Below are positions 8,978 to 61,900 of a stretch of DNA of 64,000 nt, piece by piece. This stretch comes from Shinisaurus crocodilurus. Lineage: Eukaryota; Chordata; Lepidosauria; Squamata; Shinisauridae. A program made the translations under genes and the position numbers. The stretch's first letter is position 1, and each line of letters starts with the position of its first letter. Below the pieces are notes generated by a model. It made no database searches. It was not told the DNA's origin and saw nothing but the letters and a program-made list of their open reading frames with translations. The stretch lies in contig CM037877.1 in NCBI GenBank assembly GCA_021292165.1, positions 302,142,726 through 302,206,725 of the forward strand, given 5' to 3'.

Positions 8978-8979
<2 letters not shown>

Positions 8980-9020: not shown

Positions 9021-9023
<3 letters not shown>

Positions 9024-9094
9024 CACATATGCTTGTAAATACCTCACTCTGAGCTATAGAGACAAGAGGATGTATTCATCTCTCTAAATAAATG

Positions 9095-9964: not shown

Positions 9965-9969
9965 AAATG

Positions 9970-14655: not shown

Positions 14656-14661
14656 TTTATT
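14656..14661 (-). terminator. Candidate poly(A) signal of NUFIP2-like gene
   Basis: AATAAA on the minus strand about 270 bases past the stop codon at 14932, followed by an A-rich run. It is a good fit for the end of a short 3'UTR. Confidence 0.55.
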
Positions 14662-14931
14662 TTCAGGGGAATCCAGAGAAATTAAAAACCATGTGAAGAA
14701 ATTAAAAACCAGAGCATTAAATCAGAGAGAAAGGGGGGAGGAGGTGAGACATCAGTCCCACCCAGGACAATTTGGGCTATAACAGCAAAGGAAGGGAGGG
14801 AGGCAGGTAGCGTAGCTTCCCCTTTCAAGATGCCTGGGCTTCTCCAGTCTTCAAGGGGGTGGGGTGGGCGCCTTGCCTCTCCCCATGTGCCCCCCATATC
14901 TTAGCGGTGCTTCCCCTGGGTGTTCTTGGAG

Positions 14932-17900
14932 TTAACCCTTCCCATCCAAGGTGTCCGTGTAGACCATCACTCTGCTAGGAGCTAGAGAGGAAAAGAAAAA
15001 TGGAAAACAGAAGGTGATGGTGCAGTGAACAATAGTTTAAAGGGAGATGTGCCAGAGGTAGTACACAAACTCCAAGCCTGATGCCTGCCCCAAATCCCAC
15101 TCTCCTACTGTACTACACTGATAGTCAAAGGACAACCCCTTATCAATCTGCTCCCACATATGCAGTTATTCCATGAGTTGGCTTAATTGTCTAAGGCAGC
15201 CCCACATCCAAAACCAGATAGTTGTGAACTCCAGCAGCTCTACTCTGCTCTTGCCCTGCCCTTGGGTACCACAGTCCCATGCAGTACAGTGTCTGCACCT
15301 CCTCATACTGTAGATAATCACTCAGCCAAGTTTCTCACACAATAGGTTGTATCCAGTGTTAGTCCTACTTAGAGCTGACCCATTGAAATGAATGTGACTT
15401 AAATTAAACTAAGATTGGATACAACCCAATGTCTACCTGCTCTTAATTCCCTGTGGCTGCTACTGCACAGACTGAAAGCTTAGGGCTGCCCAGCTTCCGG
15501 ACCTAGCATAACAACGGCCCAAGTGTGTTATTACGTGAGTTCTCCAGATTATGATCTGTGGTTAGAAGTATTTTACAAACACAATTTGATACTTTCATTT
15601 CATTCTCTGTCAGCATCATCTAGCAATTAGGGCTTCAAAATTATGGAGTGCATGTGCTCAAGCACATTTTTAAAAAGGCCAAAGGACAACATATTAAATC
15701 AGTGTCACAACTTTTAAAAGCAATTTTCGTTACAAAAACGGTGGTAAAATTGTGTTTTTTTGGTGCTGGTGGGTGGAGCTGCAACTGGCTATATGGCAAG
15801 GAATTGGCAAATATATTGAGAAATGTACATCTGCTGTGTAATCAGGTAAAGATTAAATCAATAAGCTTTCATTTCCTTTGACCATTAATTAGGCTGCTGT
15901 ATAGCATCTCAGCTGCTTTTGATTAATAATAAAGTCGATCATGCACCCACAACTCTTGGGAGTGTCATAGAATTCTTTAACACTCCTCCAATTCACCACC
16001 TACACCCCTCCAATTCACACAATTGTACTCCTCTCTATATCCTCATTTATGAAGCCACAGATTCAGCCCCCGCATCTCCAGTCAATATCGGGCAAAACTG
16101 GGCTAGATGCGTAAGTTAATTTGACCTAAAATTCTAAAGGGGGTTCCTTCCATTCCTTACCTTGACTGTGTAGCTCCCATATATGACTCCATTCTGCATT
16201 AGAAGGGGAGAGGAAAAAAGGAAATTAGAAGCCAAGTAGTAATGCATCCTGTTCCTAAATAAGCCCCAGTACCCTTCCAATATAGTTTAAGAAGCTCACT
16301 CCTCTACAAATTTCTAAATTTCAACCACACTGAGAAGAGTTGCAGTCCAGACCACACATGCCCATCCATGTACACTAGAGAGAAACCCTCCAAACTTTTA
16401 TTCAATCCACTTAAAACTATATGTAGGGATCTGCACCAAGTTATCTGGGGCAATGCTCAAATTATTAGGGGTAAAGGTGGGGGCTTGATGAAACCTGCAA
16501 GCTCCAGCTCCGACTCCCCCCAACTTGAGCCAAATCATGGCCCCTCTTAGCCTTCTAAAGTAGCCGCTACGGCTATCACAAAAGGCTCCCTTTGACCCCT
16601 CCTACCCATACTAATATGAACACTGGTCGGGGGGGAAATGTAGAATTCCATGATCAATCGTATTTTATCTAGTGAGCAGTGAAAACGTTGAGGAAAATAA
16701 ATCCTATATTCACAATACTTGTCCTTTATATCTTCACAGACTGCCAATACTATCCTAGGCCCCACCGCTTCTATGAACCACAGCAGACATTCTCTGCACC
16801 CTGAGACTTGACTGTACATTCTCTCACCATCTCCACGCACATCCCTAACAAATGAAAGATTTCCTCATCTTCACCATCTCTCTCTCTCAAATATGTTCAG
16901 TTATCTATGCAATAGCTCCTAAATCTCAACATATACACCAGTTAAGCACCCCTCCAATGGCAGCATTGGGCTCCTTCCACTATCTTACCTTCCAAGTGGT
17001 AATTTCTTGCAGCCTGCCAGTCATTGGCTTCCATTTTCTCCCAGCATGCTCCAGTGTCTGCATCTTCTACATCCTTATCTGGTGCCGTCCCACCACCCCC
17101 TCCATGCCCAGCTCCTGGCTCATTGATAAAGGAGAGGCCCCACTCATTTTGAAAGATGGCTCCCAGGTGCTGCCGCCGACTGCTGTCAGTTGGCGGGGGA
17201 CTGCTTGGGGGTGGCGCCAAGACACAGTTGGGGAGGCTATTAGTGGTGCGGACGGCTGAGGCAGGAACGTGGCAGGCTTTCCCTGGTTGATCCAAGTTCT
17301 CTTTCAGCTTGCTAGCATAAGAGATCTTGGGGATGATCCGGGCACTGCTGCTATCAACCGGGAAAGCAGGAAGGGGCCGGAAGAGTGACCATGTTTCCTT
17401 CCCAGAATCCTCAGTGGCTGCGTTGGTGGGATTAGATGTAACGGCGGGCTTCTCATTGGCTTTGACAGTGCTGTCTCGTTCCGATTCAGGAGACGATGAT
17501 GGGGAGGGTGGGTCAGAATAGCCGCGGCGTCGGTGCTGCCATCGCCCATTGGAAATGCCCTCAGGAGCACAGTGATGGCCGTTGGTGCTGGGCCCCCATT
17601 CCTTGCGGTCTGAGGGGCTGCCTCGGTAGGTCTTCCGATAGGCAGTATGGAAGGGTCGGCCATGGTAGAAGTGATGAGGGTAGCGGCGGGGGTGGTGAGG
17701 AGCTGGAGGGTCCCGCTCAGACAGTTGGAGATTGCGGATATTAAGGCTGTTGGAAGGGCTCAAGGGAACACTGGGCTCTTCAGCTATCTCAGAGGGTGTG
17801 GTATACCCATTTGACTCCCACGAACCTGAAGAGGAAGGGCAGCAAGTGTGAGGACAATGCCTGGATCGGTTACAGATCATGGAATATAGAGCAAGTTCCC

Positions 17901-20425
17901 GCCGCCCCCAGGTATTTCATAACAGGAAAGAAGATAATGCCTCCCGCATTTCCCTCAGTCATCCTCCCACTATTGACACTGTAAGCTCCTCAGGACAGGG
18001 ACCCATATTTTATTTTGGCTTAAGTTAACTCCATAAGGCACCATTTTCATTGATGGTACACTAACAACTATCACTATACTGACCCACCCCCAAGCATAAC
18101 CACAACAAAATATGGCAGATTGCTAGCATTCCGAGATTCAGTAATAAGGCTGGGAAAGTACAAGAACACCTAAACATTTGAATATTTGCGTGCTTTGTTT
18201 CTTTGAAATACAGACACATTTTTCTCCAGCTTGGGATTGGCAGGCCATAAATAAGCAGGGAATGGAACCCCATAGCGGTACAACACCCTGGAAGTTATAG
18301 TGACTTCACTAGGGGTGGGGGAAAATGACCAGTGACTAAAGTCTTCCCATCAACAGTCAATTAAAAAAAAAACCTAAGGGCTGCTAACTCCCTAAATCCC
18401 AGACAAGAATGTACAGAATTGCCTTTGCAAAAGAAAAAAAAAGGGGGCGGGGAGAAGAATTCCTCTTCTGTGCTGAGACACAGCTTAAGAAATTATAAGA
18501 TCTGAAATACCACTTCTGAGGCTGTATTAACATGTACACCCTGCTTTTTTTTTGTGGTTATCTAAATCAGCCTTACAAATAAGCCCACAGAAATTACTAG
18601 ACTGCATTTTTTACTAGCATGCCAAGAGGCTAGTAGGCTATGCTGCCTGCAGAGGAGGGGAAGCCCTCAGTTTTGTAGGTTGCATAAAAAACAAAAAACA
18701 ATACAGGCTACTAGTTTCTTGGCAGGCTACTGGTAATTTAAAAAATGCTTTCTACTAAACAGGCTGGCAGAGGAAGGGCAGGTTTCTCTTCCTCCACAGC
18801 CTGCAGACTGACAAAGGAGGAATGGAGAGATCTGTCTTTCCTCTGCCAGCCCACTCACTTGCCTCCTTGGAATTCCTGGTTGCCAGAACTGCTAAATACA
18901 AAACTGATTTAGCTTTTAAAATGTTCTGCCTTCCAGTTTTCAAACATCTCTCTACATAAGAGCCAAGGAAGGAAAAACAGATGGACCCTGTTCAGGATCC
19001 TCAAAACCCTCTCCAAAGATCCCAGAAGTGCTGGGCCCAGGAGTCCTTCCTGTAAGCCACAGAGCCCAACTCCACTGCTCAGAGAATCCAGAAGTCCCAT
19101 TTCCCCAGTTCTGTTGAACCTGTAGACTTCATTCCATTCCTAAATAAATTATAGCCTACCCTGGAGTGTGTTAGGAGGAGGAAAGGAGTACGTACTTAGA
19201 TTTATGCCAAATTTGTATCTAGTAAAGAAACAAAAGCGACAATCACATCTTCTTCCACACCATTTCAACAGACAAGGAAGACTGAGTGAAGGGTGCATAC
19301 AGTGTGGAATTCAAGGCTTTAGGTTCTCAGAATGAATGTATCTCACCCAGCACTGAGGTGCAGCCACCTCTGGGACAGAAACACACACAGACAGCATGAC
19401 AGAAGGGAAAAGGGGGGAAAGCCCCAGTCCCAGTTCAGTGCAACACACCTTCTCTGGAGACCTGGCTTGGCCTGTAGCCCAGCTCTGCTCCACCCCCTGC
19501 ATGACAGAAAGAAGGTTTTTACTTTCAGTGGTTACAGGCAATAAGGATAGCTAGAATCTAGAAGCATGTTACAAAGGCAGTCAGCCAAACAGGAGCCATT
19601 GAACAAATAACTGAGTAAGACCCACCACAGTGTTGAACAGGGAACTGAAACCCAGGAAGGGGAGTGCTGCCTAGTGAGCTGAGAATTACTAGGAAGGGAA
19701 CAGGATTCCTTGCTTCTATGGAGAGATGGGGTGGCAGGCTGTCTACTGTAGGGTTTCCCCAACATGGGTTGCCTGACCTTGTTGTGGGAATGTTTGCAGG
19801 AAACGTCATCTGGGGGCAGGGGGACTGTAGCCCTGCAAACCTAGCAGAAAATAAATGGCCAAGGCAAGTAAAACTGAGGTATGAGTGTACTCTAGTGGTG
19901 GTGAGAACTTGCTTGTCCCAGGAGTCCAGAAACTCTTGGACTAAAGGGGCAAGGGATGCATACAAGGAGTTTGGGGGGCGGGGAAGGTGAGAGACAGCTG
20001 GTTGGGAGTGAAGCAAATCTGAGAAAATGTCAAAAATTTAAGCATTCAGCAGAAAATTTCTAGTGTCCGGATGCACAGACAGCTGAATTTTTACTAGCTC
20101 CGAAGCAGGCTCCCATGACTTAAGAAAGCCTTCCCTAACCTGGTGCCCTCCAGATGTGTTGGACTACAACTTCCAGCATCCTCCAGCTAGCCATGGATGA
20201 GTGGGGGATGCTGGAAGTTGTAGTCCAACACATCTGGTGAGCATGAGGTTAGGGAAAGTTGACTTAGAATATACATTGCTGGATGCCAGGCCTCCTAGGT
20301 CCATCTAAGTTACCTGCTCGGATGCGGTTGCTGAGGTTGTGGCATTTCTCCTTCTTCCCCCCCAAGAGACGCAGCTCCTCCTCTGGGTTGCGATTCTCAT
20401 CCATGCCCAGTTCCTCTTTCTGCAT
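14932..20425 (-). CDS. NUFIP2-like protein (NUFIP2 family paralogue), 4 coding exons
   Basis: Member of the NUFIP2 family. Human NUFIP2 is an RNA-binding FMRP partner found in stress granules. Exons: 20425-20314 (first ATG; acceptor at 20439), 17825-16989, 16193-16161 (33 nt) and 14981-14932. Phases agree, giving 343 aa against about 695 in human NUFIP2. Shared blocks in the same order are: ESNGYTTP (41-48); WSLFRPLPAFPVDSSSA (182-198) followed by IPKISYASKLKENL; IFQNEWGLSFINEP (about 261-274); and a C-terminal stretch (about 299-343) with the NUFIP2-like pattern YHxxE-x3-IWxL and a final TYxxxxDxxx-like tail. The long His/Gln-rich N-terminus of NUFIP2 is missing. Residues 70-160 are Arg/His/Pro/Ser-rich, consistent with disorder. 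It is not NUFIP2 itself, being much shorter and in a KCTD13 neighbourhood. Function is inferred only from the family. The start codon is the least certain point, as an in-frame TGA lies just upstream of the exon. Confidence 0.88.
20126..20261. mobile_element. Palindromic hAT-like MITE with probable 8-bp TSD
   Basis: Same foldback family. The flanks read GACTTAAG and GACTTAGA, an 8-bp duplication with two mismatches. Just downstream of the first coding exon of the NUFIP2-like gene, in its intron. Confidence 0.75.
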
Positions 20426-21219
20426 GGCCAATGGCTGGTCTGGGATGTGGGTCAGCAAACAAGCAGTGGAGCCTCAAGGATGCAAAAGGTGTTCCGTAAC
20501 ACCAGGGACCTGTCCACAGCCCTGTGCTAACCCTCCTTCTAGGAAGACACAGACTTCCCAGGGACAACTTTCTTTCTGGGCTACAAACTAGCGGCCTCTT
20601 TCTGAAAGTGACAGGAATAGAACTTGCCCACAAACACAGAACAAAAAAGCAACCAAAATTGCAGAGATTTCTCTAATGAAAGCTACCAGATCTCCTGTAG
20701 TATTCCCCAAATTCTGCAATGCTACCACAACATAGGAAGATGAAATGGGGATCTCTAGTCCTTGTACGAACACTCCTTATCCCCCTGGTGTGTCTTCAGC
20801 TTAGCCACCCTAAACTAATCCCCAGGTAAAAGACCTTACACAAACTCCTGCATAAAGCTTAAAATAAAAGACAAAGTTTCCCCCCAATCTAATCTCTCCT
20901 CTCTTAGTTGTCTCTATATCCTATAACTCCCTCCCCCACCCCCGTTACTCAGCACTGCTACAACGCTCGGGGATCCAGTCCAAAATTCGACACCTTCCCA
21001 CAACTATAACGTTAGCTTCCTTCCTTCTCAGCAACGCAAACCCCCCGATGCCTCAAAAAGAAAAAAGCTGTTTCTTCTTACCAAAGCCCTTTCTTGCGCA
21101 CAACCCACCCCCAATGTGACTTCCCACCCACCCCCACAACCTTTGCTAATAGCTTGGCTGCCGTCTAGGAAGTTAACCAAAAAAACATAAACCGCCAACT
21201 CAAACCTATTCCTCCTCCC

Positions 21220-21690
21220 CACGTTTTTAGGGGGCGCAAACTTCCCCTACCGTCTTTCCAGCCCCTTGCCCCCGTTCCGTCAATCTGGGCGCTCCTCCTC
21301 AGAGCACAGCTAACCCACCCCCCCGTAGGCCCGGCCTCACGCTCCGAAAAATACAGCCAGGAAGCCCCGCTTAAAAAAAAACACCCCTCCGAAAGAAGGC
21401 CCTGAACAGCGGCACTGCGTAGCCTTCGCCCCAAGGCCCAACTGCCCCCTTCGCCCCCAGCCGGCTACCCGCCTCGAACCTACACCGCGCCCGCCTGCGC
21501 TCTAATCCCGGTCCCCCAAGCCCGCCCGGCACATTCACCTAGCCAGCCCCCGCCACGTGACCGGTTTTCCCCTTCGGCCTCCTCTGGTCATGTGACCGCC
21601 ACAGCCCCGCGACTTCCGGGGAGGTAACCCTAGCACGTGACCCAGCCCGGGCATGTAACTTCCTCCTTCATCACGTGAGGGCGGGAGGGC
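21220..21690 (-). promoter_or_regulatory. CpG-island promoter and likely noncoding exon 1 of NUFIP2-like gene
   Basis: CpG-dense block upstream of the first coding exon. On the minus strand a donor GGCTAG/GTGAATG has its last exon base at 21539. Four E-box motifs lie just upstream of it: CACGTGAC at 21554 and 21634, GTCATGTGAC at 21587 and the palindrome TCACGTGA at 21671. An ETS motif ACTTCCGG is at 21612. No TATA box is seen. The arrangement fits a housekeeping promoter. The start site itself is inferred. Confidence 0.65.
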
Positions 21691-21825
21691 TTTTTCCTCT
21701 CTCCACCCTCCGCACTCTGGGATTGGCTGGCTGGGTTGCCTTTTTTCCTTTTTCTTTCATTTCCACGCAGCATAATTTCGAAAAAGAAATCCATACGTTT
21801 CCCATAAAAGGGGATGGATCCCTGG

Positions 21826-25754: not shown

Positions 25755-28700
25755 TCAGTCTTTGAAAACCGCCTGGTGGCCATGGGGGCGTTCGTCATGC
25801 ATGATATGTCGACGGACATGAATACGTCGGACACGATGCTCCCGCCCATCTTCGTCATCACCAGCGCGGAGGGGGCCTCCGCCCCCACCCGCAACCCCAC
25901 CGGTTGCTTCTAGGAGGGCCTTGTCGGGCACTCGTGGCGTCTCATAGATCAGGATGTTCAGGGTTTCCTCAAAGATCCGCGCCTCCGGGAACTCCACCTG
26001 CGCACACGAGGGAAGGAAGGTAACATTGGGCAATACCAATTCCGTCCGCCACTGGTGCAAGCATTGCGCTTCAGCACATGGTTCCCTGTTCACATCCTTG
26101 CTTGGGCATAAAACTCATGGGGTGGGCTTGGGTATGTTACTATTTCTTAGTTTAACCTAGCTCACATGATCATTGCAAGGGTAAGGCTCAACTGCTGCTC
26201 TAAACTTCTTGGAGGATAAAAATGTAAGTGGGCTTGCCATTAGGGCATCTGGCTGGCCACTGTGGGAAATAGGATGCTGGAGTAGATGGGCCTTTGGTCT
26301 AATCCAGCACGCCTCTTCTTATGCTCTTCATTGGATCTAGGAAAGTTGAGCTTAAACAGCATCTTAGCAAGCGATTCATTTGGTTCCCCAGTGTATGAAG
26401 TGGGAATAATAGTGGCCTTGTTATGAGAATGAAAAAGCACTTGTATATTCTGAGCCTTATTATAAGTAATTCTAGTTGTGCTGGAAAGTTGAAAAGCCAC
26501 ATCAACCACAGCCATATTGTGTAACGAGCCACAATTTAAAAAAGGGGGGGGGGATTGTAGCGATGGGAAGTGGGCAGTTCAACAGGTCTCACAAAATACC
26601 AGATGGCTGTGAAGAGGATCTGTGGGCTGGAATCTTTACTGTCAGGCAGCCTTGGTCTATGTTCACTTGCAGTTTCTTTCTGCCCCCTCTATCTGAAGGG
26701 AAGAAGCTGGGAACCTGGACAATGTCATCTACTGCCATTTATGACCCCATTAGAACTGTAAGCCCCTTTGGGAATTTATCTTGGCTGAAGAGCAGAGTGT
26801 AAATATAATAAAAATAAAAGCAGCTAATTACAGCTGATTTTAAAATAATGGGACAGCAGAGGTGGATGTTTTCTTTCACAAAGTGTGTGTCTTTGCAATG
26901 AACTAAGTGGTGTAAAAGGAAGGGTGGTGGGATACAGTCTCATAAGATGTTGCAGTTACCAACTTGAAGGCTAGTGTGCTGCCTCCGCAGAAGTTAGTTA
27001 GTAGATGAGGAAGAGAAGAGTACTCGTAGTGGGAGACTCCCTCCTGCGGGGGATCGAAGCCAAAGTATGTCGCGAAGACCCATGGACTCGCCAGGTGTGC
27101 TGTCTCCCTGGGGCACGGATTAAGGATGTGACAGAACAGCTGCCGAGGCTCATGCAGCCCACCGACACATACCCCTTTCTTCTCTTCCACGTGGGTACAA
27201 ATGATACTGCCAAGCGGAGTTACAAAGAAATCACGGCAGACTTTTGAAGAGCTGGGAAGGGAACTCAAGAACTTCGGGGCCCAGATAGTTTTCTCATCCA
27301 TCCTTCCAGTACTTGGAAGAGGCATAGAAAGGGAAAGAAAAATACTCCGAGTGAATGACTGGCTACGAAGGTGGAGCCGACGTGAGGGATTTGGATTCTG
27401 GGACCACGGGCTACACTTCCTGGAAGATGGACTGCTGGCAAAGGATGGGTTGCACCTGGAAGATGGACTGCTGGCAAAGGATGGGTTGCACCTCACAAGG
27501 ACTGGGAAGAATGTGTTTGGACACAGCATGAGGAACTTAATCAGGAGGGCTTTAAACTGAATCCAACAGGGGAGGGAGACATAAACTCGGGGGTACCAAT
27601 GGAAGAAGGCCTCTATGCCACAATGGAGAGAACAGCTCCAGCGGTGCCCATTGATAGTCTACCACAAAATGTAGGGGGAAAGTCGGACTATAAAGCACAT
27701 AGTCTTCAATGTCTCTATACTAATGCCCAGAGTATGGGCAATAAACAAGACGAACTTGAACTCTTGATACATGAGGGCAAGTACGACTTGATAGGGATAA
27801 CTGAAACCTGGTGGGATGACTCCCATGACTGGAATACAGCAATTGAAGGGTATAACTTGTTCAAAAGGAACAGAAGCAACAGAAAGGGAGGTGGAGTTGC
27901 ACTGTATGTTAAAAATACGTATCTCTGCACAGAGATACAGGAAGAGGAGCTTGGCAGCCCCATTGAGAGCATCTGGGTTAAAATAAAGGGGGCAAAGAAT
28001 AAAACGAACATGGCGGTTGGAGTCTACTACCGACCACCCAATCAAGGAGAAGACGAGGATGGAACTTTTGAAAAGCAAATTGCCATTGTTTCAAGGAGGC
28101 ACGATGTGGTAGTAATGGGAGACTTCAATTTCCCTGATATCTGTTGGGAGACTTATTCAGCCAAACATGGCCCCTCCAAGAAATTCCTGACCTGTGTTGC
28201 TGATAACTTCCTCCTACAGAAAGTGAAGGAAGGAACTAGAGGATCGGCTATCCTTGACCTGATTCTAACCAACAGAGACGAGTTAGTGGATAAAGTGGCA
28301 GTTTCGGGAACTCTGGGGGAAAGTGACCATGTTATACTAGAGTTCTTGATTCTAACAGAAGCAAAAGCTGAGTGTAGCCAAACACGTACCCTGGATTTTA
28401 GGAAAGCCAATTTTAACAAACTCAGAACAATGATTAGTAAGATCCCATGGCAAGTGACTCTCACGAGAAAGGGAGCCCAGGAGGGGTGGGAGTTTTTAAA
28501 GAAGGAAATTTTAAAGGCACAATTGCAAACAATTCCCACAAGGAAAAAAGGCAGAGGGCAACAGAAAAAGCCAATGTGGCTTCACAATAAACTCAAAGAT
28601 GACCTGAAAACAAAAAAGGACACGTATAGGAAGTGGAAGGAAGGACAGGCTACAGGGGAAGAGTACAGGCAGGTAGCACAGAACTGCAGGAATAGTGTCA

Positions 28701-37700: not shown

Positions 37701-38676
37701 GGAAGGGTTCCACAATTGGGCCCCCACAACTGAGAAGGCCCTCTCGATATCTTCACAGCCTGTCTTGGCTAGATGGAAACAAGAGCGGGGCATCCCCTGC
37801 AAATCTTAATTTTGAAAAAATCAAATATAAAATTGTAAATATTCACAGAAGTTGTCCAGAGCCACGGAGATACAGCAAGATATCAACTTGTAATATATAA
37901 ACAAAACAAAAAGAGAGCCAGTGCGGCGTGAGTGTTGGACTGGGACTCGGGAGATCTGAGTTCTAGTCCCTGCTCCGCCATGAAACTCACTGGGTGACTT
38001 TGGGCCAGTCACTGCCTCTCAGCCTAACCTACCTCACAGGGCTGTTGTGAGGATAAAATGGGGAGGAGGATTATGTAAGCCGCCTTGGTTTCCTTGCAGG
38101 AAAAAAAGGCGGGGTATAAATGTAATAAATAAATAAATAAATAAAAATAATAAAGCTGAGAGGGATAGAGTTGTTCCTTCCTTTACCTAGTTATCAAGCT
38201 TTGCCTTCAGCCTGTCAAAGTTCTCTTCTGCATCTACAGGGACTAGGAAATTGTTTTCCCTCTTCTAAAGACATGAAAGTGATATTCCTCAGGGGTTCAC
38301 TGTTCAGTATATTCGGAAGCAGACATGATTCACAAATGCAAGCTGCATCATGCAGAAAACCCGAGGTCTTGGTTATGGGGATTGTGGAGAGACTGAGAAG
38401 CTCCAGCATTGTACCTTCACTATCCGTGAGCACCTCCATCCTGCCACTGAACATAGCCTTGAGCATTGTGTCTTGCTTGGTAAGGGTTTGCACTGTGGTG
38501 TAATGCAGGGACCCTCCCACATTCAGCTTGACATACTTGCTGCTGGGGTTCAGGGGTTTGAGATCAAAGGTCACACCAGCTACTGCTCCTCCGCCATCCC
38601 GTCGCTGCTGGGTGAGGACCAGTGGAGCACAATTCTCCAGGGGTGGGGCCTGATCTGCTGTTGCCTCAGCTGACAT
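25755..38676 (-). CDS. KCTD13: KCTD13 (BACURD1/PDIP1), BTB adaptor of CUL3 ubiquitin ligase, 6 coding exons
   Basis: Substrate adaptor of the cullin-3 E3 ligase. The family targets RhoA and the protein was also described as a PCNA/polymerase-delta p50 partner. Coding exons: 38676-38415 (acceptor at 38682), 34821-34652, 33271-33182, 31836-31784, 31624-31429, 25997-25755. Phases agree, giving 337 aa (human 329). The BTB/T1 domain starts near residue 47 ([15 protein letters not shown]) and runs through exon 2 ([19 protein letters not shown]). The central region [15 protein letters not shown] and the C-terminal [17 protein letters not shown] are almost as in human. The PCNA-box-like QTKVEFPE spans the last exon junction. 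The N-terminal 40 residues are the divergent part. The introns hold a CR1 LINE (antisense), a LINE fragment between long direct repeats and a Helitron-like element. Confidence 0.97.
26230..26331 (+). mobile_element. CR1-type LINE 3' end
   Basis: CATCTGGCTGGCCACTGTGGGAAATAGGATGCTGG through TCTTCTTATGCTCTT, the same tail type as at 47495 but on the other strand. Lies just beside the last KCTD13 exon. Confidence 0.6.
27005..27560 (+). pseudogene. CR1 ORF1 esterase domain, frameshifted
   Basis: SGNH-hydrolase/esterase-like ORF1 of CR1: VVGDSLLRG and FHVGTNDT are the diagnostic blocks, followed by FSSILPV and [13 protein letters not shown]. The reading frame breaks at about 27240 in a run of T (gacttttgaa), so the N-terminal part (27005-27247) ends early and the rest continues in another frame to 27560. 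A tandem 36-bp duplication at 27421-27492 repeats [12 protein letters not shown]. Both defects suggest this ORF1 is inactive in this copy while ORF2 is intact. Confidence 0.8.
27421..27492 (+). repeat. Perfect tandem duplication, 2 x 36 bp, inside CR1 ORF1
   Basis: Two identical 36-base units, starting TGGAAGATGGACTGCTGGCA, are head to tail. The length is a multiple of three, so it adds 12 residues without a frameshift. The identity of the two units means a recent event. Confidence 0.95.
27599..30469 (+). CDS. CR1 ORF2: endonuclease-reverse transcriptase, 956 aa, intact
   Basis: Polyprotein that nicks target DNA and reverse-transcribes the element RNA. The N-terminal APE-type endonuclease (about residues 38-250) shows [21 protein letters not shown] (about 173) and SDHVILEF (about 241). 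The reverse transcriptase (about 450-730) shows [30 protein letters not shown] (about 602), [20 protein letters not shown] and the catalytic FADD (about 689). The C-terminal region ends in the usual CR1 pattern WNQLPREVV. No stop or frameshift over 2.87 kb implies a young copy. The real start may be a few codons off. Confidence 0.92.
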   Translation: MEEGLYATMERTAPAVPIDSLPQNVGGKSDYKAHSLQCLYTNAQSMGNKQDELELLIHEGKYDLIGITETWWDDSHDWNTAIEGYNLFKRNRSNRKGGGVALYVKNTYLCTEIQEEELGSPIESIWVKIKGAKNKTNMAVGVYYRPPNQGEDEDGTFEKQIAIVSRRHDVVVMGDFNFPDICWETYSAKHGPSKKFLTCVADNFLLQKVKEGTRGSAILDLILTNRDELVDKVAVSGTLGESDHVILEFLILTEAKAECSQTRTLDFRKANFNKLRTMISKIPWQVTLTRKGAQEGWEFLKKEILKAQLQTIPTRKKGRGQQKKPMWLHNKLKDDLKTKKDTYRKWKEGQATGEEYRQVAQNCRNSVRKAKAENELRLARNAKSNKKAFFRYMHSKRQKKELVVQLRNEDGKLITEDKEKAEVFNSYFGSVFSQKRVYDPPGKPEVQTEGAELQLEIDRQMVKEHLITLNEFKSPGPDELHPRVIKELAEELSEPLSIIFEKSWRTGEVPDDWRRANVVPIFKKGKKEEPGNYRPVSLTSIPGKILEQIIKKTVCKHLENNAVITRSQHGFVKNKSCQTNLISFFDRVTSLVDCGNAVDIIYLDFSKAFDKVPHDILISKLAKSGLDGTTIRWIHNWLQNRTQRVLINGSFSNWGEVTSGVPQGSVLGPVLFNIFINDLDQEVQGMLIKFADDTKLGGTANTLEDRNKIQSDLDRLERWAENNRMKFNRDKCQVLHLGRGNQMQSYRMGDTWLNNTTSEKDLGIVVDHKLNMSQQCDVAAKKANAILGCINRSIASKSREVIIPLYSALVRPHLEYCVQFWAPHFKKDIDKLERVQRRATRMIKGLETRPYEERLKELGMFSLQKRRLRGDMIALFQYLKGCHTEEGKDLFSFIPVCRTRNNGLKLQEPRFHLNIRKKFLTVRAIRQWNQLPREVVGSPSLEAFKVQLDRHLSEML
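31010..31370. mobile_element. Foldback MITE in KCTD13 intron 5
   Basis: GAAATGGCTTGTTTAGCATGTCATC is mirrored by GATGACATGCTAAACAAAGCATTTC, with GATCCTGGCTTGTT...AACAAGCCAGGACT between. A related sequence lies at about 50690-50930. Confidence 0.5.
32375..32680. mobile_element. MITE with CTGGGTTCAGACAACAC inverted ends
   Basis: Starts CTGGGTTCAGACAACACGTTAACCCAC and ends GGTTATCATGTTCTCTGAACCCAG. The interior repeats GTGGGTTG and its complement many times. A second copy of the end motif at about 32590 shows two overlapping units. Confidence 0.6.
32853..32988. mobile_element. Palindromic hAT-like MITE
   Basis: CAGTCTTCCCCAACCTGGCACCCTCCAGATG and CATCTGGAGGACACCAGATTGGAGAAGG arms. A partial right arm of another copy lies just before it at about 32818-32839. 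Confidence 0.72.
33312..33418 (+). repeat. Left 107-bp direct repeat around LINE fragment
   Basis: Identical to 33879-33985 apart from two substitutions. It contains the perfect hairpin GCAATTCCTGGGTT-GTTT-AACCCAGGAATTGC that belongs to the surrounding palindromic MITE. Confidence 0.9.
33419..33878 (+). mobile_element. 3' fragment of a non-LTR retrotransposon with C-terminal zinc finger, flanked by 107-bp direct repeats
   Basis: Encodes the end of a LINE ORF2: [20 protein letters not shown] and [12 protein letters not shown], a stop or shift, then [11 protein letters not shown] and a CxxC...HxxxxH finger ([21 protein letters not shown]). It ends with a (GAT)n tail. It is flanked by direct repeats of 107 bases. 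It lies in KCTD13 intron 2. Confidence 0.75.
33879..33985 (+). repeat. Right 107-bp direct repeat around LINE fragment
   Basis: Copy of 33312-33418, beginning at AGATGCCTCAG right after the GAT tail and ending at GAGCGA. Beyond it the host MITE sequence continues. Confidence 0.9.
34961..35653 (+). mobile_element. Helitron-like non-autonomous element in KCTD13 intron 1
   Basis: Starts TCTATATATATATATAAAAG after an A and ends in a GC-rich hairpin region (GTGAGCGCAGCTGCGGGCAAC) with ATCTAC before a T. This is the 5'-TC, 3'-hairpin plus CTRR-like layout and A/T insertion of Helitrons, with no inverted repeats. The terminal CTAC differs from CTRR. No helicase gene is present. Confidence 0.62.
35815..35840. 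repeat. (AC)13 microsatellite
   Basis: Uninterrupted AC units in KCTD13 intron 1. Confidence 0.95.
36545..36830 (-). mobile_element. LINE-tail-like repeat (unclassified)
   Basis: Contains GAAAAGTCTTGAACTGGCACTGGATC and GGGCAGGGAGTTCCACAGCCTGAGTAGAG, text shared loosely with 37690-37760, 42340-42600 and the insert at 45476-45796. Class unknown to me. Confidence 0.4.
37914..38150 (+). mobile_element. Squamate tRNA-derived SINE, full length
   Basis: Head like a tRNA with pol III boxes (GTGCGGCGTGAGTGTTGGACT; A and B boxes partly mutated), then the conserved body CACTGGGTGACTTTGGGCCAGTCACTGCCTCTCAGCCTAACC, TAAGCCGCCTTGG and an (AAAT)n tail. Located in KCTD13 intron 1. Confidence 0.85.
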
Positions 38677-38823
38677 GGCCACCTGCAGAAAAGAGAAATT
38701 GAACAGAGAGATCCTCCAGTACCAGGCTTCCTGCACAGGGCGTGTGTTGCATTAGGTTATTTATTTATTATTATGTCTTAAAGAAACAATTCATTTTTTC
38801 CCTGCAGAGAAAAGGCACTATGT

Positions 38824-52900: not shown

Positions 52901-55900
52901 TCCTGCCTGAAGGGTTATTCCCTGCATCTCCCAAATACCTTTTCGAATGACCCGTAGAGGTCTCTCCAGCCTACAATGAGCTGAGCCTTCTTCTTGCCAA
53001 TCCGGTGCAGGGCCATGAGATCCTTCACTGAGCCCATGTTCAGGAGGGCCAGGATGTTGTCCTTGCTGTGATTCAGCAGATCGGGACGGACCTCCACCTC
53101 CCACTCTGGGGGAGCCTCATTTTCAGAGTCAAGGGCTAAAGCCTGAAGGACAAACATGGAAAGGAAGAGAGGGGCTAGATGCTGCGGCACGGTGGCCTCT
53201 TCCGGCCATTTCTTGATCAGCCCCCTTTGTCCTTTTGCCCAAATCCCTTTATTGGCCTCACCACTCACTAACATAGAGTGCAGGAGCCACAGCCAAGAGC
53301 AGTCCAACTGCGTTCCATGGTAGCTTAGTTGGGGGTTCCGCAATGAGATCAGGCATGGTGGATAAGATTAATTGCCCAGTGCCACTACCGAATTCCTGAC
53401 TTGTGTTGGGATGCAGGGCCAGCACTGTTGGCCATCTGCCGAGGCCCACCCCATTCTGGGGCCCCACTGCCAACTCCTGGAGCATCCGCTTGCCATGCTG
53501 TCTCTGCCTGTTCACCTGCCCTCTCCAAGCACACAAGCAGTGATGGAGGGGACAAAGCGACATCCCCCAGTCGCCCTGCATGTGCCCAATGGGCGGTTGT
53601 GTAGATCAGAGATGGAGGGAGGGGCAGGCAAACAGGCAGTGGTGACAAGGTGTGCCCCACTGAGGGCGTCTTGTCCCAGGGCCCCTCCAAACCTGGAGCA
53701 TTACTCACCTGTATTCTAGAGTGCAATTCCCAGTTTGCTCAAGGAGAGGAGACAAGCCCATGGGCCTGGCTAGTGCCCTGAACGAATTAAGAGTAGGCTC
53801 TAGCCCAGTGTGGCATAGTGGTGAGAGTGCTGGACTGGGACTCGGGAGATCCGGGTTCAAGTCCTCACTCGGCCATGAAACTCACTGGGTGACTTTGGGC
53901 CAGTCACTGATTCTCAGCCTAACCTACCTCACAGGGTTGTTGTGAGGATAACATGGAGAGGAGGATTATATAAGCCACCTTGGGTTCCTTGCCGGAAAAA
54001 AGGTGGGGCATAAATAGAATAAAATAAATAAATAAATAGACCATTCCCAAGGATTCTCTGCAACATGCGGCACAGATGCAGCAATGTGGGAACTGTTGAA
54101 ACTCACTGGGTGACTTTGGGCCAGTTGCTGACTCTCAGCCTAACCTACTCACAGGGTTGTTGTGAGGATAAAATGGAGAGGAGGATTATGTAAGCCGCCT
54201 TGGGTTCCTTGCAGGAAAAAAGGCGGGGGTATAAATAGAATAAATAAATAAATAAATCCAGCGACAGACGATGCTTTGCATGCATGTGTGGAGGCACCAA
54301 GTTCGATGGGAGGCCGCTGGCCTGAGGCCACTCATCCAGAACTTTGGTCTGGCTCAGACAGTCGGACATCTCCAAAGCCACCCTCTTTCTGACCCCTTAA
54401 GAAACCATTCCCAACGTTTTCCCACCGGATTTCACCCATAAACATTTAAACTTGTTTATAATGGGTGTGTGTAGGGCAGGAGCAGCCCTGATACCCCACC
54501 TAGGTATTGCCTCTGCTCCTGACATGAACTTGGGGGACGGGGGATTGCTTCTGGGGAGGGTTCGCTCTTTGCCCCACTGCCGAGGCCGAGACAGCCTGAA
54601 CACGAGTAGGCATCAGTCACTGGGTGAAGGAGTTTGTTCTAGGGTAGAAGTTAAACAGCAGGGCTAGGAAACCTGTGGCTCTCCAGATGTTGGATTACAA
54701 CTCCCATTAGCCCCAGCCAGCATGGCCAATGGTCAGGGATGATAGGGACTGGAGTTAAACATGAGGCGGGGAGCAAAGGTTCCACAGCTCTGATCTACAG
54801 GCAGAAGCCTCTTCCTACCTCTGCTGTTTGTAAACCGCCTCAACAACCATCCCAAGTGGTAGGAAAGTGTTATGTAAAATCTCTTAAATTACTTTGCTTG
54901 CCGCCACCGCCTCCATCACCACCACCCCATTCAGCAAGATGGCCCCCCAAATCCCCTTACACACCTTTCTCTTTCGGCTTCCCTTCTTCTGCTTTACGAC
55001 AACAATGCCTTCCTCTTCCTCCTGAGTCTCTCCAGCAGTCTGCACTGGATAGGAAGAGAAGGGAAGCTGAGACCTTGCAAGATAGAAGGAAATCCTGGCT
55101 TCCGGATCCTCCTCCCCAGTCGCTCCAGTCCTCCTACCTTGCTGGAAGGGCAATACCGCTGCCTGTTTTCGGGGTTTGGCTGACAAACGAGGGGCAAGCG
55201 CACGATCTTTCTCTTGCCGAGCGTTGGCTTCCATCTCCAGCTGCTTTTCTTTAAGACTCTGCAGGAAGACGGGGAGGCAAAGAGAAGAATGAGGGAAGAT
55301 TTAAATTGAGCACTCCACTTGATGACTGGCCACCACTGTATGAACGAGTCTTTGGCATAAGACATGGGAGGGACACAGTTTTATTTCTATCAGAAACCTC
55401 CCCCCCCCCCCCCAAGTACCCACTTGGAGCTACTTCTCCCAGCTCCCTTTAAATCCCTCCTCTTCGGTGCAGCTTTCAGCCTACCCCCTTAGTTCTCCAC
55501 CCCAGTTGAAACAGAATATGGGTAACTCCCAACTGTGCATATTCTTCCTGTTACAAGGGCCTCTGTTCTCTGTTTCCCCACCCACCCTCATCTCCTTAAA
55601 ATACCTATGAAAAGCTACCCAGGCTCTGGGAAGCCTCCAAGGAAGAGGAAGTCCCACAATTATGGGGCAACCAATGAAACCCAGAACAGGTCAAGAGGGC
55701 TTGTTTCATTGGCCTGCTGCAACCAACAGCCACTCAGGCTCCTCCCCATCCCTGCCCCATCCAGCAGTCAATTGGTGGCCTCGCAGGTGGCAGGAGAGAG
55801 AGAGGACTGCTACTGCATTAAAGCAGGGATGAGGAACGAGTGGGTCCTCCAGATGATGTTGGACTGCAACTCCAATCAGCCCTTGCCGTTGACTACGTTG

Positions 55901-58900
55901 GCTAGGGCTGGCGGGAGTTGCAGTCCACAGATATCTGGAGGGACCACACATTCCCCACCCCTGAAATAAAGGGATCTTTGTTGATTAGTTTTCAGTCAAA
56001 TAAATTTGCATGTGAAGCAAACAATGCCTTGTGGGGGGGGGGGGTCGGGGGACAACACTTAGTGGGGCAGGCACCACCTCAGAAGCATTCCCGCCTTCGT
56101 GAAAGAGAAAGGACTGCCCTCTTCTAAAATGGCGCTTGTCACTTGGTTTTTTGTCAATATTTGTATTTTGAAAAACAAAAAAAATTCCTAACATTAAAAG
56201 TCTGCAGCCTGCTTAATTTGGGACAGCTTTTAAAATGGATTAATCTGATCAGCCAAGTAAGTACACACAGACCCTGCCTTACTCTTTGTGAGATCATGAT
56301 GGAACGTAGAGAATGACCACAGGCTCCACTGCTACATGTTCCTGGAGGAGGAGGAGGAGGAGGAGGAGGAGCAAAGCAAACCCCAAACCCTTCACCTTCA
56401 GCTCACGTCGAGTCTCGTCCAGCAGCTTCAAAACGCTCAGCCGCTCACTGCGTGGCGTGTTGAGCAGCGGCAAGACGCGACTCCCGGCCCCTGCCTGCTC
56501 CTTTTCCAAGGCCTCTAACCGCAGCAGCCGCTGAACCACGGCTGGCTCAAGATTCTCCAGAGGCAGTAAGGAACTGGTGGGGAGAGAGATCAGAGGTAAA
56601 GTACCAGGTCCCACCTCGCTCTTTCAACAAACCAGCCAGAGCTGGAGCTCCCTCCTCGGTTCGCCATTTCAAGCGTGGGGCGGCCATCCTCCCAAAACGG
56701 CATGAAAGAATTTGACTGGACTGCAAAGCACAGCTTAGGCCCTTCGTCAAGACCTATACAATACATTATGATGCCTCACCTGAGTGGCTTCGCCTCAGCC
56801 ACACTTGGCTGTTCCTCCTCTGGGCAAGGTCTCTTGGCCTCTGGGCCTACATCGCTGGAAGGTCTTTTGGACACTGCCAAAGGCAAGGACACTTTAGTTT
56901 ATCGGATGCATTAATAAGACCTTACAGCTTGCTCTAGCCAGGCTGCCCTCCCCCCAGCCCCCAGGCCATCTAACACCGAGGGAAAGATTCCCAGGGCTCC
57001 TTGTTCTTTTGATATTGTTCATTGCGATTTAATTATGCACGTAAGCCTCCTTGGAAGAATTTGTATTGTGAAAAGCATGGGGTTATAGACAACCAGAAAT
57101 ATCTCACCTTTCCAAAATCATTTCAAGTCAGCTAACAAATTGCACATCACAAAGAAAAATACAGTAGCCATTGAACTATTAGAATACGAAAATATAAATA
57201 CGGTTACAAAACTCAAGTATTGCATAGAAACATTCACCCTCTCAAAGCGGTAGCAGATAAAAACAAATACAAGCGTCTTTTTTTTAACTTGGCGCTTAAA
57301 ACCCATTAAGAGTTGGTGCCATCTGCATGGACCCAAGGGAGGTGTTCCAAAATATGGGTACTACCTCTGAAGAGGCCCAGCTCCTGGCCAGCTTCCGCCC
57401 AACCTCAATTGGCAGGGGAATCTAACCACAGGACACAGACTGGTCTGTAGAAAAGGGGCTGGGAATCTAAGGGCCTGGTGCCAAATCCAGCCCCCGGGGA
57501 TTCCCCAGAAGGCCATGCCCCCTTTCCCCTGGCCCCACCCCTTTCCCCCAACCACCAATCATTGGGTGGTTTCCTGGCTTTTGTGCAGTATCCCCATTCT
57601 AAAAGGTTGAAATGCCTCTCCTAAGGCTTAGTTACTGGCACCAAGAGCTTTAGGCTAACATATGTTAGTATTTCTGAGTTCGGGCCTGCCCACCGCTGGA
57701 CTGTGGCCCCCAAGAGCTTCTCCGAAATGGAATTTGGCCCTCGGGCTGAAAGAGATTCCCCACCTCTGCTGTAGAGGGTGGGCGGTAGTCCACGAGGAGA
57801 GAGCAGATCATGGACGGCTGTAGTATATATTTAGAGCTGGGCCATGATAAAGAAACTTGCAGGGGTCGGGGAGGGAGGAATCTGTACATAGCACCACACT
57901 CCATTCCTGGGTGGCCCAAGAATTCTGGGCTCCCTGCCACTTCTTTCCCGGCAAACTTGTCCTGTCCCGGTCAACTCCAATCCACCTCCCTTCCTTACCA
58001 ATATCTGGTAGGGTTTCCTGGGTGAAGGGTTTGTTCACCACCTGCTTGGACTTGGCAGCAAAGTTAAGGCTTGTGAGGGTGTCGAAGTAGTACCTCTCCT
58101 CAGGGGCTATGTTTGCAATGATCACGCTGTGAGCACTACCGCCCAGAGAATCCTGAAGGGGAAACCACAACAAAAAAAGATATTCTGGGGGAGGGAAAAC
58201 GCCCCAGCTCCTAAGCCCCAAACCTCCCGCCCCTCCAGGGAACCCACACCCCGTAACTACCTGCAGAAGGCGGGTCAGTTTGCTGTCTCTGTAGGGTACC
58301 CGAGGCAAGCCCTGGTTGAGGGCATCAACCACCTTGCTGAGCACAAAGAGCGAGGTGTTGATGGCGCCGCTCTCCTTCAGGCGCAGGCCTTGATTCCCTG
58401 TCCGACGGTTGTCCTCTGAGCCGGCCAAGTCGATGAGGCAGAGCTTGGCGGCCCGGCGGGCGTATGGTGGCCAGCCCTGGGTCTGGCTCACCCGGACCAG
58501 CAGGACAGCGTGGCTGCGGCTGGAGCGTTGATTTAGCTGCGTGGACGCCACAGTCCGATTGGAGCAGGCGGGCAAGAACTGGCTTTCAAAGTCCGCAAAG
58601 TTTGTGATCTCGCACTGTGTCAAGCCCGGCACCAGGATGCGATGGTTACGATCCTCCCGGATAGGTAAGTCACGGAGGGAGGGCTTTAGGAGGTCCAGAA
58701 CCTGGGAAGCAACAAACCGTCAGCAGCTCGGGTGGAAGCGTCACCTCGAACCCCATCCCTTCTATCCCCTTGCCTCTCAACACCGCACGGAGACCACAGC
58801 TAGCCTGTGTGAACGAGGGGTTTCTTTTGATCAGGCACAATGGAAGCCCAGTCTCTCACCCCAGGAGAAGGCAGCAGTGCCCTTTTATGACATGTGGCAG

Positions 58901-61900
58901 AACAGTTTTCCAGAAAGATTCCAGGGGCTTTATTTTTCCATTGAAATTTTTCCATTTCGTAAGTACAAGAGTAGCAATAAATAGGTGCTAATTGCAAATG
59001 AAATATTAGGCAAACTTGGCACTTTCATACTTGTCGATCAGTGGTTGTCAGCAAAGCATACACGGTCCTTTGGGTTGCTAAAATGTATTAGGATGTACTC
59101 CTAGCGATCGCGCCCTCGATGCTCGTAAGCCTCTGAACTCGGAGGCTTACGGACATCCAGTGCAGAGCAAGAGGAGCAGCAGAGGCAATCTCCGCCTCCC
59201 TGCACCTCCCACTCTGCAATTCAGCTAGAGGGCCGATTTCGGCCCTCTGGCTAAGGCGTTTTGGAGGGGGAGGGAAGGAGGCTGGAGCATCACCAGGATA
59301 CCTCATATCCTGGCAGCCCCAGTCTCCTCCCCTCCCCCCTCCCGGAACCACCCCCTCTACCCCCCTCTCCAAGGTCGATTTTTCCAACCTCAGAGAAGCA
59401 GCCAGCGTGGTTCTTTCTGCACCGGTTATGGGAGGGGGAGATTGGAGCATGGGTCCACAGCTCCAAGATCAGCGCTCTGTTTCCAACCTTGGATCTGGGT
59501 ATCTGCAGTATCCTATGGTCCCCTGTATGCTGCGTAGGGGTCCATAGGATAGGTCTCAGTGTGTCAACAGCTTTCAGTAATTAAAAAAAAGCTTTGTTGC
59601 TTACTAAATACAAGTAAAATTAACATACTAAATCAGCTCTGGGCAGGAGCACACAGCCTCAGGCCTGGGGGTCCAAATCTGGCCCACTGGGGGTCCCCAA
59701 AAGGCCCCGCCCCGCCCCCTTCCCTGGGCACCACGCCTCCCCCCCCCCAACTATGGGTTGTTCGGTGGTGGCCTGACTTTTGTGAAGCTTTTTCCACTCT
59801 AAAAGGTGGAAATGCTTCTCCTAAGGCTTAACTACCGGCAGCAAGAGCTCGAAGTTTAAATAGGCTGGTGTTTTTGGCCCTGCCCACCACTGCAATTTGA
59901 CCCCCGAGAGCATCTCCAAAACGGAATTCAGCCCTCAGGCTGAAAAAGGTTCAGCATCCCAGCTCTAGGACATCAGGAAATTTTCCAACACAAATTACCT
60001 TATGCCAATTTACCCAATTTGCATTGGAAAAAATTCCAGTGTTCTCTGCAAAAACCCCACATCACTACGGACCCCAGTAAGGGCCTTTCCAAAAGGGAAT
60101 GTAGAAAGGGGATACACCCTGGCAGATCGCCTTAGTACCAGCTTACAGATCTTTTGCAAATTCCTCTGGGTCTTGCATCTCACACTGCATGCCCCAAGTC
60201 TATTTGAGGATGGTTTCCTGCCTTCCTCCACATCACTGGCGTTCAGCCCCTGCATGAGGTTTTTTTTTGGGGGGGGGCTCCCTTCGTGAGGTTCTCTTTC
60301 TCTGGTCTCCACTCCCCTTCCTCCACCTTCCTCTGCTTCCCTGCTCCCCAGGCAAGAGAGGCCTCCTTTCTCCTGAGCACTGTGGCTCACCCTCTTTCGT
60401 CTCCTTCTCCAGCCTTTACTTCTTCCTCTGCCCACCCCTTACAATCCCAACTCTCCTCTTCGCTGTCCTCTCTTTCTTCATCTCCTCCTTGCCAGTCTCC
60501 TTTGTGTCTGTGAACTCTGCCCATCTTGCCCTGCCCTCTGCTTTTTCTTCTCTCCCTTTGCAGTTGTTACGGTTCACTTCTGAGCCCCCGGTCCCCTCCC
60601 CACCAGCCATGCTTCAGCTCTTCACCAAAGGCCTCCCAGGTCCACAAGTGACATCATCAATGGGCACTGGGACCACTCCTGATCAGCCCAGCAACAGCAA
60701 GTGGTGCAGGAGTGGCAGCCATGCCAATCTCTGATACCAACCAACTCACAGATCTCCGAGACCAGGGGTGGGCAGAAAGGAGATCTCCAGATGTTTCTGG
60801 ACTTCAGCTCCCAGCATTCCTCACTACTGGTCATGCTAGCAGGGGCTTCTAGGAGTTGAAGTCCAAAACATCTGAAGATCTACCTTCTGTCCACTCTGTC
60901 CTAGACCAATGGATAGCAGGATGGAGCTCTGGTTACATTAACAAACTTTCCAGGACTAAAAGCATTGCCCAGTCTTAACCACAAACTGAAAAGCAGGTGC
61001 AAGAGGCAAATCCACCACCAGTATTCCTTGCTGCAATCTGCTAGGCCGTGTTAGTGATGTAACCGATCGCCTCACGCGAGCCGAAATCAGGCCCGCTAAC
61101 ACTCGCACGGACCCACCTTTTTCTGGCGGCAGCTCACCGTGGAGAGGCGAGCCGCCCACACCGGCCCATCATGTCACTTCCGGCGCGCTGGAAGTGACGC
61201 GACGGGACCAGCGCGCCCGTCGCTGGCAGCTGGAGCAGCGCAGAGAACACTCTGCGCCGCTCGGAAGAACGAGGCAGGGGGGCCGCCGCTGCGGAGAATC
61301 GAGGCGGCGGAGAGGCGAGCCCCCCCACAGGTACGTGAACACCGCTGGCCGTGCTCTCCCCAACCTGTCTGGTTTTTCAGTCCCATTATGTTCCAGGTCA
61401 CCTTTCTCCCCCAAAGATTCCAGTTCTTTGCCAATGAACCTGCTCCATTTCCCCCTCTCACGCAGTTCTGCCAGTCATTCATTACCTTCTCTTGGTAGAT
61501 TTCCAGATAAGACATGGAGACTGAGTATTTCCACTCCTCCCCGGAAGCATCCCTGGTCATTTGCAAGACATCCCGGATGGCTCGTGGTATCACCCCCGGC
61601 TGATCTGGACTCCCCAACATGGTGTGAGTCTTGCCTACCAATTTGGCGAGAGGAAGGAAAGATGGGAAGATCATCCAAAAGTCCGATTCCAGACCCCAGC
61701 TGATCCCAAATCCTCTGGGTTGATTTGGTCCATTTGTACTGTTCAACATTCACCTGCTCCAGTAGGCCCATAAGCCAAGATGCTGGCATTCTGCCCCTCC
61801 AGCAGATGGCGCAAGACAGGCTGAATGGACCCCGTGTAGACATCATGCTGAGTGGCCGCCTCACTGTAAAAAGCGTCAAACCTAGTGGGGAGAGAGGAGT

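What the first reader, a model, noticed from the sequence alone, without database searches (positions are those of the whole stretch)
14932..21690. A NUFIP2 ohnologue beside KCTD13
The four-exon gene encodes the NUFIP2 family blocks in order (SNGYTTP, WSLFRPLPAFPVD, IPKISYASKLKENL, IFQNEWGLSFINEP, IWEL tail) but is half the length of NUFIP2. From memory, human NUFIP2 and TAOK1 lie on 17q11.2 with TNFAIP1, and KCTD13, TAOK2 and ALDOA lie on 16p11.2, opposite ALDOC. A NUFIP2 paralogue next to KCTD13 fills the empty 16p slot. This suggests a 2R ohnologue kept in reptiles and lost or decayed in human.
Basis: partly seen in the sequence, partly recalled or inferred. Interest (0 to 1): 0.87.

Follow-up and report, generated by a model that had tools for sequence, protein, structure and literature searches.

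The report
Ancient short NUFIP2 gene duplicate
A lizard-type genome carries, beside KCTD13 and near KIF22, an intact shorter sister of the gene NUFIP2 that fishes, amphibians, turtles and lizards share but that is not listed in the matching stretch of human chromosome 16, so it looks like a copy left from the early vertebrate genome doublings.

Summary
It sits downstream of KCTD13 with KIF22 beyond, so the locus matches human 16p11.2, whose published 27-gene order has no NUFIP2-like gene (PMC11848116). The copy is not reptile-only: turtles, amphibians, coelacanth, paddlefish, teleosts and sharks have it, mostly as unnamed models. Trees part it from NUFIP2 (99/94, 100/100, 92/83); a tetrapod-level duplicate is rejected (p-AU 0.0003, with a human sequence recalled from memory). 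An exon-3 Trp replaces the Met of NUFIP2 (112 W, 0 M against 81 M, 0 W). Best reading: a 2R ohnologue, probably a short Roquin/FMRP-docking adaptor. Open: the root within the copies (four alternatives not rejected), TAOK2 (not in the window), gene order in other species, squamate NUFIP2 (genome search did not complete).

The parts
20314..20425 (-). Coding exon 1 (112 nt), MQKEELGMDENRNPEEELRLLGGKKEKCHNLSNRIRA; start codon at 20425
   Evidence: donor GTAACT; the same start MQKEELG(M/I)DENR(N/D)P in most squamate and turtle proteins printed.
19449..19496 (-).
   Evidence: AG acceptor, GT donor; ELGYRPSQ occurs in P0002 Sceloporus, P0003 Rhineura, P0008 Lerista (3 of 266 fetched proteins).
16989..17825 (-). 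Coding exon 2 (837 nt): WESNG block, H/Y/R-rich stretch, block B WSLFRPLPAFPVDSSSARIIPKISYASKLKENL, VPASAVRT, block C LGAIFQNEWGLSFINEP
16161..16193 (-). Coding exon 3 (33 nt): inside the C-terminal helix, with the Trp that is diagnostic for this copy
   Evidence: helix 305-328 in the Podarcis model.
14932..14981 (-). Coding exon 4 (50 nt) with the stop codon; tail APSRVMVYTDTLDGKG
21000..21749 (.). CpG island, likely promoter / first non-coding exon (not proven)
   Evidence: obs/exp CpG 0.88 and 0.79 in its two 500-base windows against 0.31 for the whole window.
25755..26114 (-). Last exon of KCTD13 (open stretch with stop), the upstream neighbour on the same strand
   Evidence: the tail letters fit KCTD13 as recalled; the PDB search of this piece gave no hit.
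38218..38751 (-). KCTD13 first coding exon (BTB part; ATG at about 38676), open stretch
   Evidence: best PDB match 4uij BACURD1 (KCTD13) 83.5 bits, BACURD3 78.8.
52918..61749 (-). KIF22 (exon-bearing stretches, not fully modelled; ends approximate)
   Evidence: 57811-58719 matches 6nje KIF22 with 282 bits, next kinesin 122 bits; further kinesin-like stretches, read by eye.

Best explanation
This is the KCTD13-side ohnologue of NUFIP2, born in the early vertebrate genome doublings (2R). It is kept from sharks to squamates and is absent from the human 16p11.2 gene list. SHOWN: an intact, intron-bearing gene; family membership; a tree place outside NUFIP2; 16p11.2-type neighbours KCTD13 and KIF22; residue signatures shared with copies in fishes and amphibians. 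INFERRED: origin by whole-genome rather than small-scale duplication. MECHANISM (inferred, about 0.45): a mostly disordered cytoplasmic adaptor. Its block B lies inside the part of NUFIP2 (aa 255-411) that binds Roquin and the FMRP N-terminus, so it should dock the same partners. Its own Y/R/H/G-rich stretch would enter RNA granules, and the C-terminal helix would add a further contact that differs from NUFIP2 (Trp for Met). It would tune Roquin/FMRP-dependent mRNA repression beside, or in competition with, full-length NUFIP2.
For: Pfam. Gene model. Orthologue lists. Trees: 34 rows against 12 at 99/94 (30); 25 against 8 at 100/100 (46); 92/83 with hagfish and recalled human NUFIP2. Late duplicate rejected. 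Exon-3 Trp: of 121 proteins with the A-type block C, 112 W, 0 M, 9 unreadable; of 115 with the D-type (GDIFQN and the like), 81 M, 0 W, 9 other, 25 unreadable; 30 of 266 unclassed, of which 6 W, 5 M, 1 I, 18 unreadable. Same patterns for all rows: GxW[ED] in the first 80 residues in 108 of 121 A-type against 0 of 115 D-type (110 and 2 if the first 200 are taken), GY[AT][TA]PKK in 0 of 121 against 108 of 115. Same intron-2 position in both kinds (3 copies and 6 NUFIP2 that read into it; 51, 68). In 11 fish species that I picked by eye, NUFIP2 and this copy are listed with contigs of different length (11 of 11; nine pairs chromosome-sized). Locus: 12, 37, and gene order in PMC11848116. Block B 25 of 33 identical to zebrafish NUFIP2; binding fragment 255-411 in PMC5775257. 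Model: helix 305-328 at pLDDT about 90 or more, the rest largely disordered.
Against: No squamate or other tool-fetched tetrapod NUFIP2 was at hand; the human row is recalled. Where the NUFIP2 branch enters the set of copies is not fixed: holding NUFIP2 together with the tetrapod copies (p-AU 0.10), tetrapod + coelacanth copies (0.23), teleost copies (0.245) or shark copies (0.36) is not rejected, so orthology of the shark and teleost copies rests on the best trees and the residue signatures, not on the AU tests. Shark, teleost, paddlefish and hagfish rows are on long branches, and the program warned of long branches in all three sets (30, 46, 47). In one search the coelacanth falls outside ray-finned fishes + tetrapods, at weak support. 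TAOK2 is not in the window, and gene order around the copy in other species was not examined. KIF22 and KCTD13 have seven genes between them in the human order (44). No binding or expression data exist here.
Confidence: 0.8

Rival explanations
1. An ancient but small-scale (segmental) duplicate of NUFIP2 that arose before jawed vertebrates and happened to land beside KCTD13, not a product of whole-genome duplication.
For: The trees place the split before the tetrapod-fish split but cannot tell the kind of duplication; hagfish shows only two near-identical models (P0079, P0080).
Against: It lies in the very block whose neighbours KCTD13, TAOK2, SEZ6L2, ALDOA, CORO1A have relatives on 17q11.2 with NUFIP2 (17q pairs recalled; NUFIP2, TAOK1 and SEZ6 in one 17q11.2 deletion: PMC4886423, passages; 16p order).
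Confidence: 0.12
2. A late (tetrapod or squamate) duplicate of NUFIP2.
For: Block B is as like to zebrafish NUFIP2 (25 of 33) as to the coelacanth copy (25 of 33).
Against: Rejected with p-AU 0.0003 (tetrapod) and 2e-43 (squamate), with the recalled human row; copies in paddlefish, teleosts and sharks share the Trp, and the coelacanth copy the N-block.
Confidence: 0.03
3. A decaying gene or retrocopy without function.
For: It is about half the length of NUFIP2 and lacks most of its N-terminal half.
Against: Introns with intact splice sites, no internal stop, 88-91% identity over the full length to the Podarcis, Tiliqua, Candoia, Sceloporus, Rhineura and Salvator proteins; an unnamed, turtle-like protein covering the coding exons sits on a contig of only 1180 bases (P0013), as a spliced transcript would.
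Confidence: 0.03

Closest known systems
NUFIP2 (82-FIP), Pfam PF15293
   Same: Order of blocks B (WSLF..FPVD..PKISYASK.KENL), VPxSA, C (FQN.WGLSFINEP), C-terminal tail; intron-2 position.
   Different: About half the length (343/359 aa against 637 in zebrafish and 695 in human); no SESGYTTPKK block; own N-terminus (MQKEELGMDENRNP, WESNG); LGAIF for LGDIF; Trp for Met in exon 3; other locus.
si:ch211-214j24.10 (teleosts)
   Same: Groups with it in the trees, same Trp and GTWE block.
   Different: Shorter (about 260-300 aa) and far more diverged; clone-based name only.
Reptile and amphibian models such as LOC114581571 (Podarcis), LOC100145486 (Xenopus), LOC120404729 (Mauremys)
   Same: Orthologues by sequence and tree.
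   Different: Annotated automatically as 'uncharacterized' or 'NUFIP2-like'; no paper found on them in the searches listed under Tried and rejected.

Membership tests
NUFIP2 family (PF15293) | Match to the curated profile above its cut-off | tested here: met
   96.5 bits against 27.
NUFIP2 family (PF15293) | Blocks B and C and C-terminal tail in order | tested here: met
NUFIP2 family (PF15293) | Direct binding of Roquin and FMRP | not testable with these tools
   Binding fragment 255-411 known for NUFIP2 (PMC5775257, passages read).
NUFIP2 proper (orthologue) | SESGYTTPKK block, GDIFQN, Met in exon 3 | tested here: not met
   window has WESNGYTTPSEI, GAIFQN, Trp.
2R ohnologue | Split older than the tetrapod-fish split | tested here: met
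   the tetrapod NUFIP2 row (human) is recalled, and four other attachments of the NUFIP2 branch are not rejected (46).
2R ohnologue | Place in a paralogon shared with the sister gene | tested here: inconclusive
   KCTD13 and KIF22 in the window (12, 37) match 16p11.2 (44); 17q side only from PMC4886423 and recall; TAOK2 not in window.
   Not in the published 27-gene order of 16p11.2 (44); no mammal, bird or crocodilian among the 72 of 89 hits that show an organism. Human DNA itself was not searched.

The most novel reading that the evidence does not exclude
Jawed vertebrates had two FMRP/Roquin-docking NUFIP2 proteins, one of them encoded within what is now the 16p11.2 neurodevelopmental locus. 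Mammals (and perhaps birds and crocodilians) lost the short one, so that mammalian Roquin/FMRP control runs with a single NUFIP2 and the mammalian 16p11.2 block lacks one ancestral RNA-regulatory gene.
Probability: 0.4. Interest if true: 0.68.

Novelty: new member of a known kind. Interest (0 to 1): 0.55.

Why it matters
No passage seen here mentions a second NUFIP2, yet squamates, turtles, amphibians, coelacanth, paddlefish, teleosts and sharks seem to have one that is shorter. Its home is the block that in people is the 16p11.2 autism-associated region, and its sister binds FMRP and Roquin. Frog, fish, turtle and lizard models could show what the pair does that mammals with one NUFIP2 cannot. 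A zebrafish or Xenopus model of 16p11.2 or NUFIP2 function should count this gene. The automatic names ('uncharacterized', 'formin-like protein 7', 'translation initiation factor IF-2', 'splicing factor', 'GPI-anchored protein 58') need correcting.

Tried and rejected
Late duplicate: rejected. Pseudogene: no stop, sites intact. 'SNGYTTP' as a family block: not upheld. TAOK2 or another gene left of the copy: six frames of 1-14700 gave only transposase families. Further genes between KCTD13 and KIF22: four of six frames of 39000-53500 gave no Pfam family. Solved structure of the family: none by profile at E up to 1. KCTD13 tail in the PDB: none. Own-genome search for squamate NUFIP2: not completed. 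The two alignment searches list only the best 120 of 479 and of 441 hits; one search shows fish and unnamed rows only, so tetrapod NUFIP2 was not reached. Papers: NUFIP2 + ohnolog 0; 'NUFIP2-like' 0 (55); ch211-214j24.10 0 (26); TNFAIP1 + KCTD13 + KCTD10 + whole genome duplication 0 (42); NUFIP2 + vertebrate + phylogen 9, none on the gene's family by title (14, listing). (at least 2, 4, 2 and 2 of their terms) listed 20 of 587, 2 of 2, 15 of 111 and 12 of 41 papers; none of the listed titles is on a second NUFIP2.

Full report
What is there. The minus strand of 14932-20425 holds a NUFIP2-family gene: Pfam PF15293 with 96.5 bits, E 2.4e-27. Four coding exons with GT/AG sites give 343 aa. A 48-nt exon at 19449-19496, in frame and flanked by AG and GT, encodes a peptide that occurs in the Sceloporus and Rhineura models and partly in Lerista. 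So there are two likely forms, 343 and 359 aa. A CpG island at about 21.0-21.75 kb is the probable promoter. Exon 3 is only 33 nt. Two squamate models, P0007 (Naja) and P0008 (Lerista), lack its residues, which fits skipping or a missed small exon.

Where it is. The same strand carries KCTD13 upstream. Its BTB part (38218-38751) matches the solved KCTD13 (BACURD1) best, but only a little better than KCTD10 (BACURD3; 83.5 against 78.8 bits); the last exon (25755-26114) fits KCTD13 as recalled. KIF22 follows at about 53-62 kb: the piece tested matches solved KIF22 with 282 bits, the next kinesin with 122. In human, KIF22, KCTD13, TMEM219 and TAOK2 stand in this order in 16p11.2, seven genes lie between KIF22 and KCTD13, and none of the 27 is NUFIP2-like (PMC11848116, passages read). 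In the window KIF22 and KCTD13 lie about 14 kb apart with no Pfam family in four of six frames between them, so the order differs from human. TAOK2 is not seen in the window.

Who else has it. One search returned 89 proteins. Identity to the window protein: squamates (P0001-P0010) 77-91%; turtles (P0011-P0015, P0045, P0047) 40-55%, P0047 over part of the length only; named frogs, caecilians and salamander 35-39%. Then come coelacanth (P0052), paddlefish (P0055), sharks (P0054, P0069, P0070, P0071, P0074, P0081), teleosts named si:ch211-214j24.10 (P0084, P0085, P0089), fish NUFIP2 and two hagfish rows. 72 of 89 rows show an organism, by my reading of the table, and none of these is a mammal, bird or crocodilian. 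That search only sees proteins of 0.55 to 1.75 times the query length that share short words with it. Birds need care: KCTD13 itself is counted as missing in songbirds in PMC3711925 (passage read), so the whole block may be badly assembled or lost there. One search added many teleost copies, many teleost NUFIP2 (best 120 listed of 479 and of 441).

Tree. With 46 rows the window gene and all copies (34 rows) stand apart from ten fish NUFIP2, the recalled human NUFIP2 and hagfish (12 rows), support 99/94. Inside the set, squamates join turtles, then amphibians; but the coelacanth (with the unnamed P0048) falls outside ray-finned fishes + tetrapods at weak support (80/55 and 82/76), which is not the species tree. 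Without hagfish and human (33 rows) the split between NUFIP2 and the copies has 100/100. With 35 rows including both it has 92/83. Holding the tetrapod copies with human NUFIP2 costs 147 log units (p-AU 0.0003), and the squamate copies with human NUFIP2 255 (p-AU 2e-43). Results against: four other ways of attaching the NUFIP2 branch to the set of copies (with tetrapods, tetrapods + coelacanth, teleosts, sharks) were not rejected (p-AU 0.10, 0.23, 0.245, 0.36). The root within the copies is therefore open, and shark and teleost orthology leans on the best trees and the signatures. The program warned of long branches in all three sets.

Signatures. I classed the 266 fetched proteins by block C: 121 A-type, 115 D-type, 30 unclassed. 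At the exon-3 position A-type rows show Trp in 112 and Met in 0 (9 unreadable); D-type rows Met in 81, Trp in 0, other in 9, unreadable in 25; unclassed rows 6 Trp, 5 Met, 1 Ile, 18 unreadable. With one pattern for all rows, GxW[ED] in the first 80 residues is in 108 of 121 A-type, 0 of 115 D-type and 7 of 30 unclassed (110, 2 and 7 in the first 200 residues), and GY[AT][TA]PKK in 0 of 121, 108 of 115 and 12 of 30 (a first count used slightly different patterns for the two kinds). Nine proteins, three copies and six NUFIP2, read into an intron at the same codon, YHxx-GK, so intron 2 is shared. From the tables I picked by eye 11 fish species with both genes on one listed contig each (Melanotaenia, Toxotes, Anabas, Echeneis, Solea, Cyclopterus, Aulostomus, Antennarius, Clinocottus, Brachyistius, Lucifuga; Lates japonicus and Scophthalmus were left out for several contigs or unlike assemblies). 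In 11 of 11 the contig lengths differ; in all but Brachyistius and Lucifuga the contigs are over 15 Mb. By this the genes are not tandem copies there; the rows stand for clusters, so the contig may belong to another member.

How it probably works. NUFIP2 aa 255-411 binds Roquin-1 directly, and the same fragment binds FMRP 1-132; the fragment is described as largely unfolded and as modulating RNA binding (PMC5775257, passages read). Block B of the window protein falls within this fragment (position by the recalled human sequence) and is 25 of 33 identical to zebrafish NUFIP2. The AlphaFold model of the Podarcis orthologue is largely disordered except for a C-terminal helix 305-328 and a short hairpin in block C (mean pLDDT 52). 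The copy has its own Y/R/H/G-rich stretch (up to 50% in 40 residues in the window protein, 65% in a shark, 30% in two fish NUFIP2); this is no clean difference, since human NUFIP2 as recalled has a His-rich N-terminus. I infer a short granule adaptor that docks Roquin and FMRP and competes or cooperates with NUFIP2. No binding, expression or localisation was tested here.

Transcription. The unnamed, turtle-like P0013 has the coding exons (306 aa) on a 1180-base contig, and frog-like P0038 421 aa on 1481 bases. In the window the coding exons span 5.5 kb, so such contigs look like spliced transcripts. This is indirect.

Novelty. The models exist in databases without a proper name. No paper of the held library has NUFIP2 with 'ohnolog', or 'NUFIP2-like', or ch211-214j24.10. 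The library lacks most subscription papers.

Noticed in passing
window 19449-19496 (-): 48-nt cassette exon in intron 1 of the gene, peptide shared with three other squamate models.
   Followed up: yes
window 2299-3651 (-): Open 451-aa frame of a DDE_Tnp_4 (recalled as Harbinger/HARBI1-type) transposase, E 1.7e-29.
   Followed up: partly
window 27386-30466 (+): Open 1027-aa LINE-like frame (endonuclease + reverse transcriptase), opposite strand, inside the KCTD13 span; its start has a 36-bp tandem repeat (27419-27493).
   Followed up: partly
window 43477-43613 and 43769-43953: Two minisatellites, periods 47 and 37, 2.8 and 5 copies.
   Followed up: no
   Followed up: partly
proteins P0055, P0070, P0045, P0047: Orthologues named by annotation as formin-like protein 7, translation initiation factor IF-2, splicing factor proline- and glutamine-rich-like, predicted GPI-anchored protein 58.
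   Followed up: no
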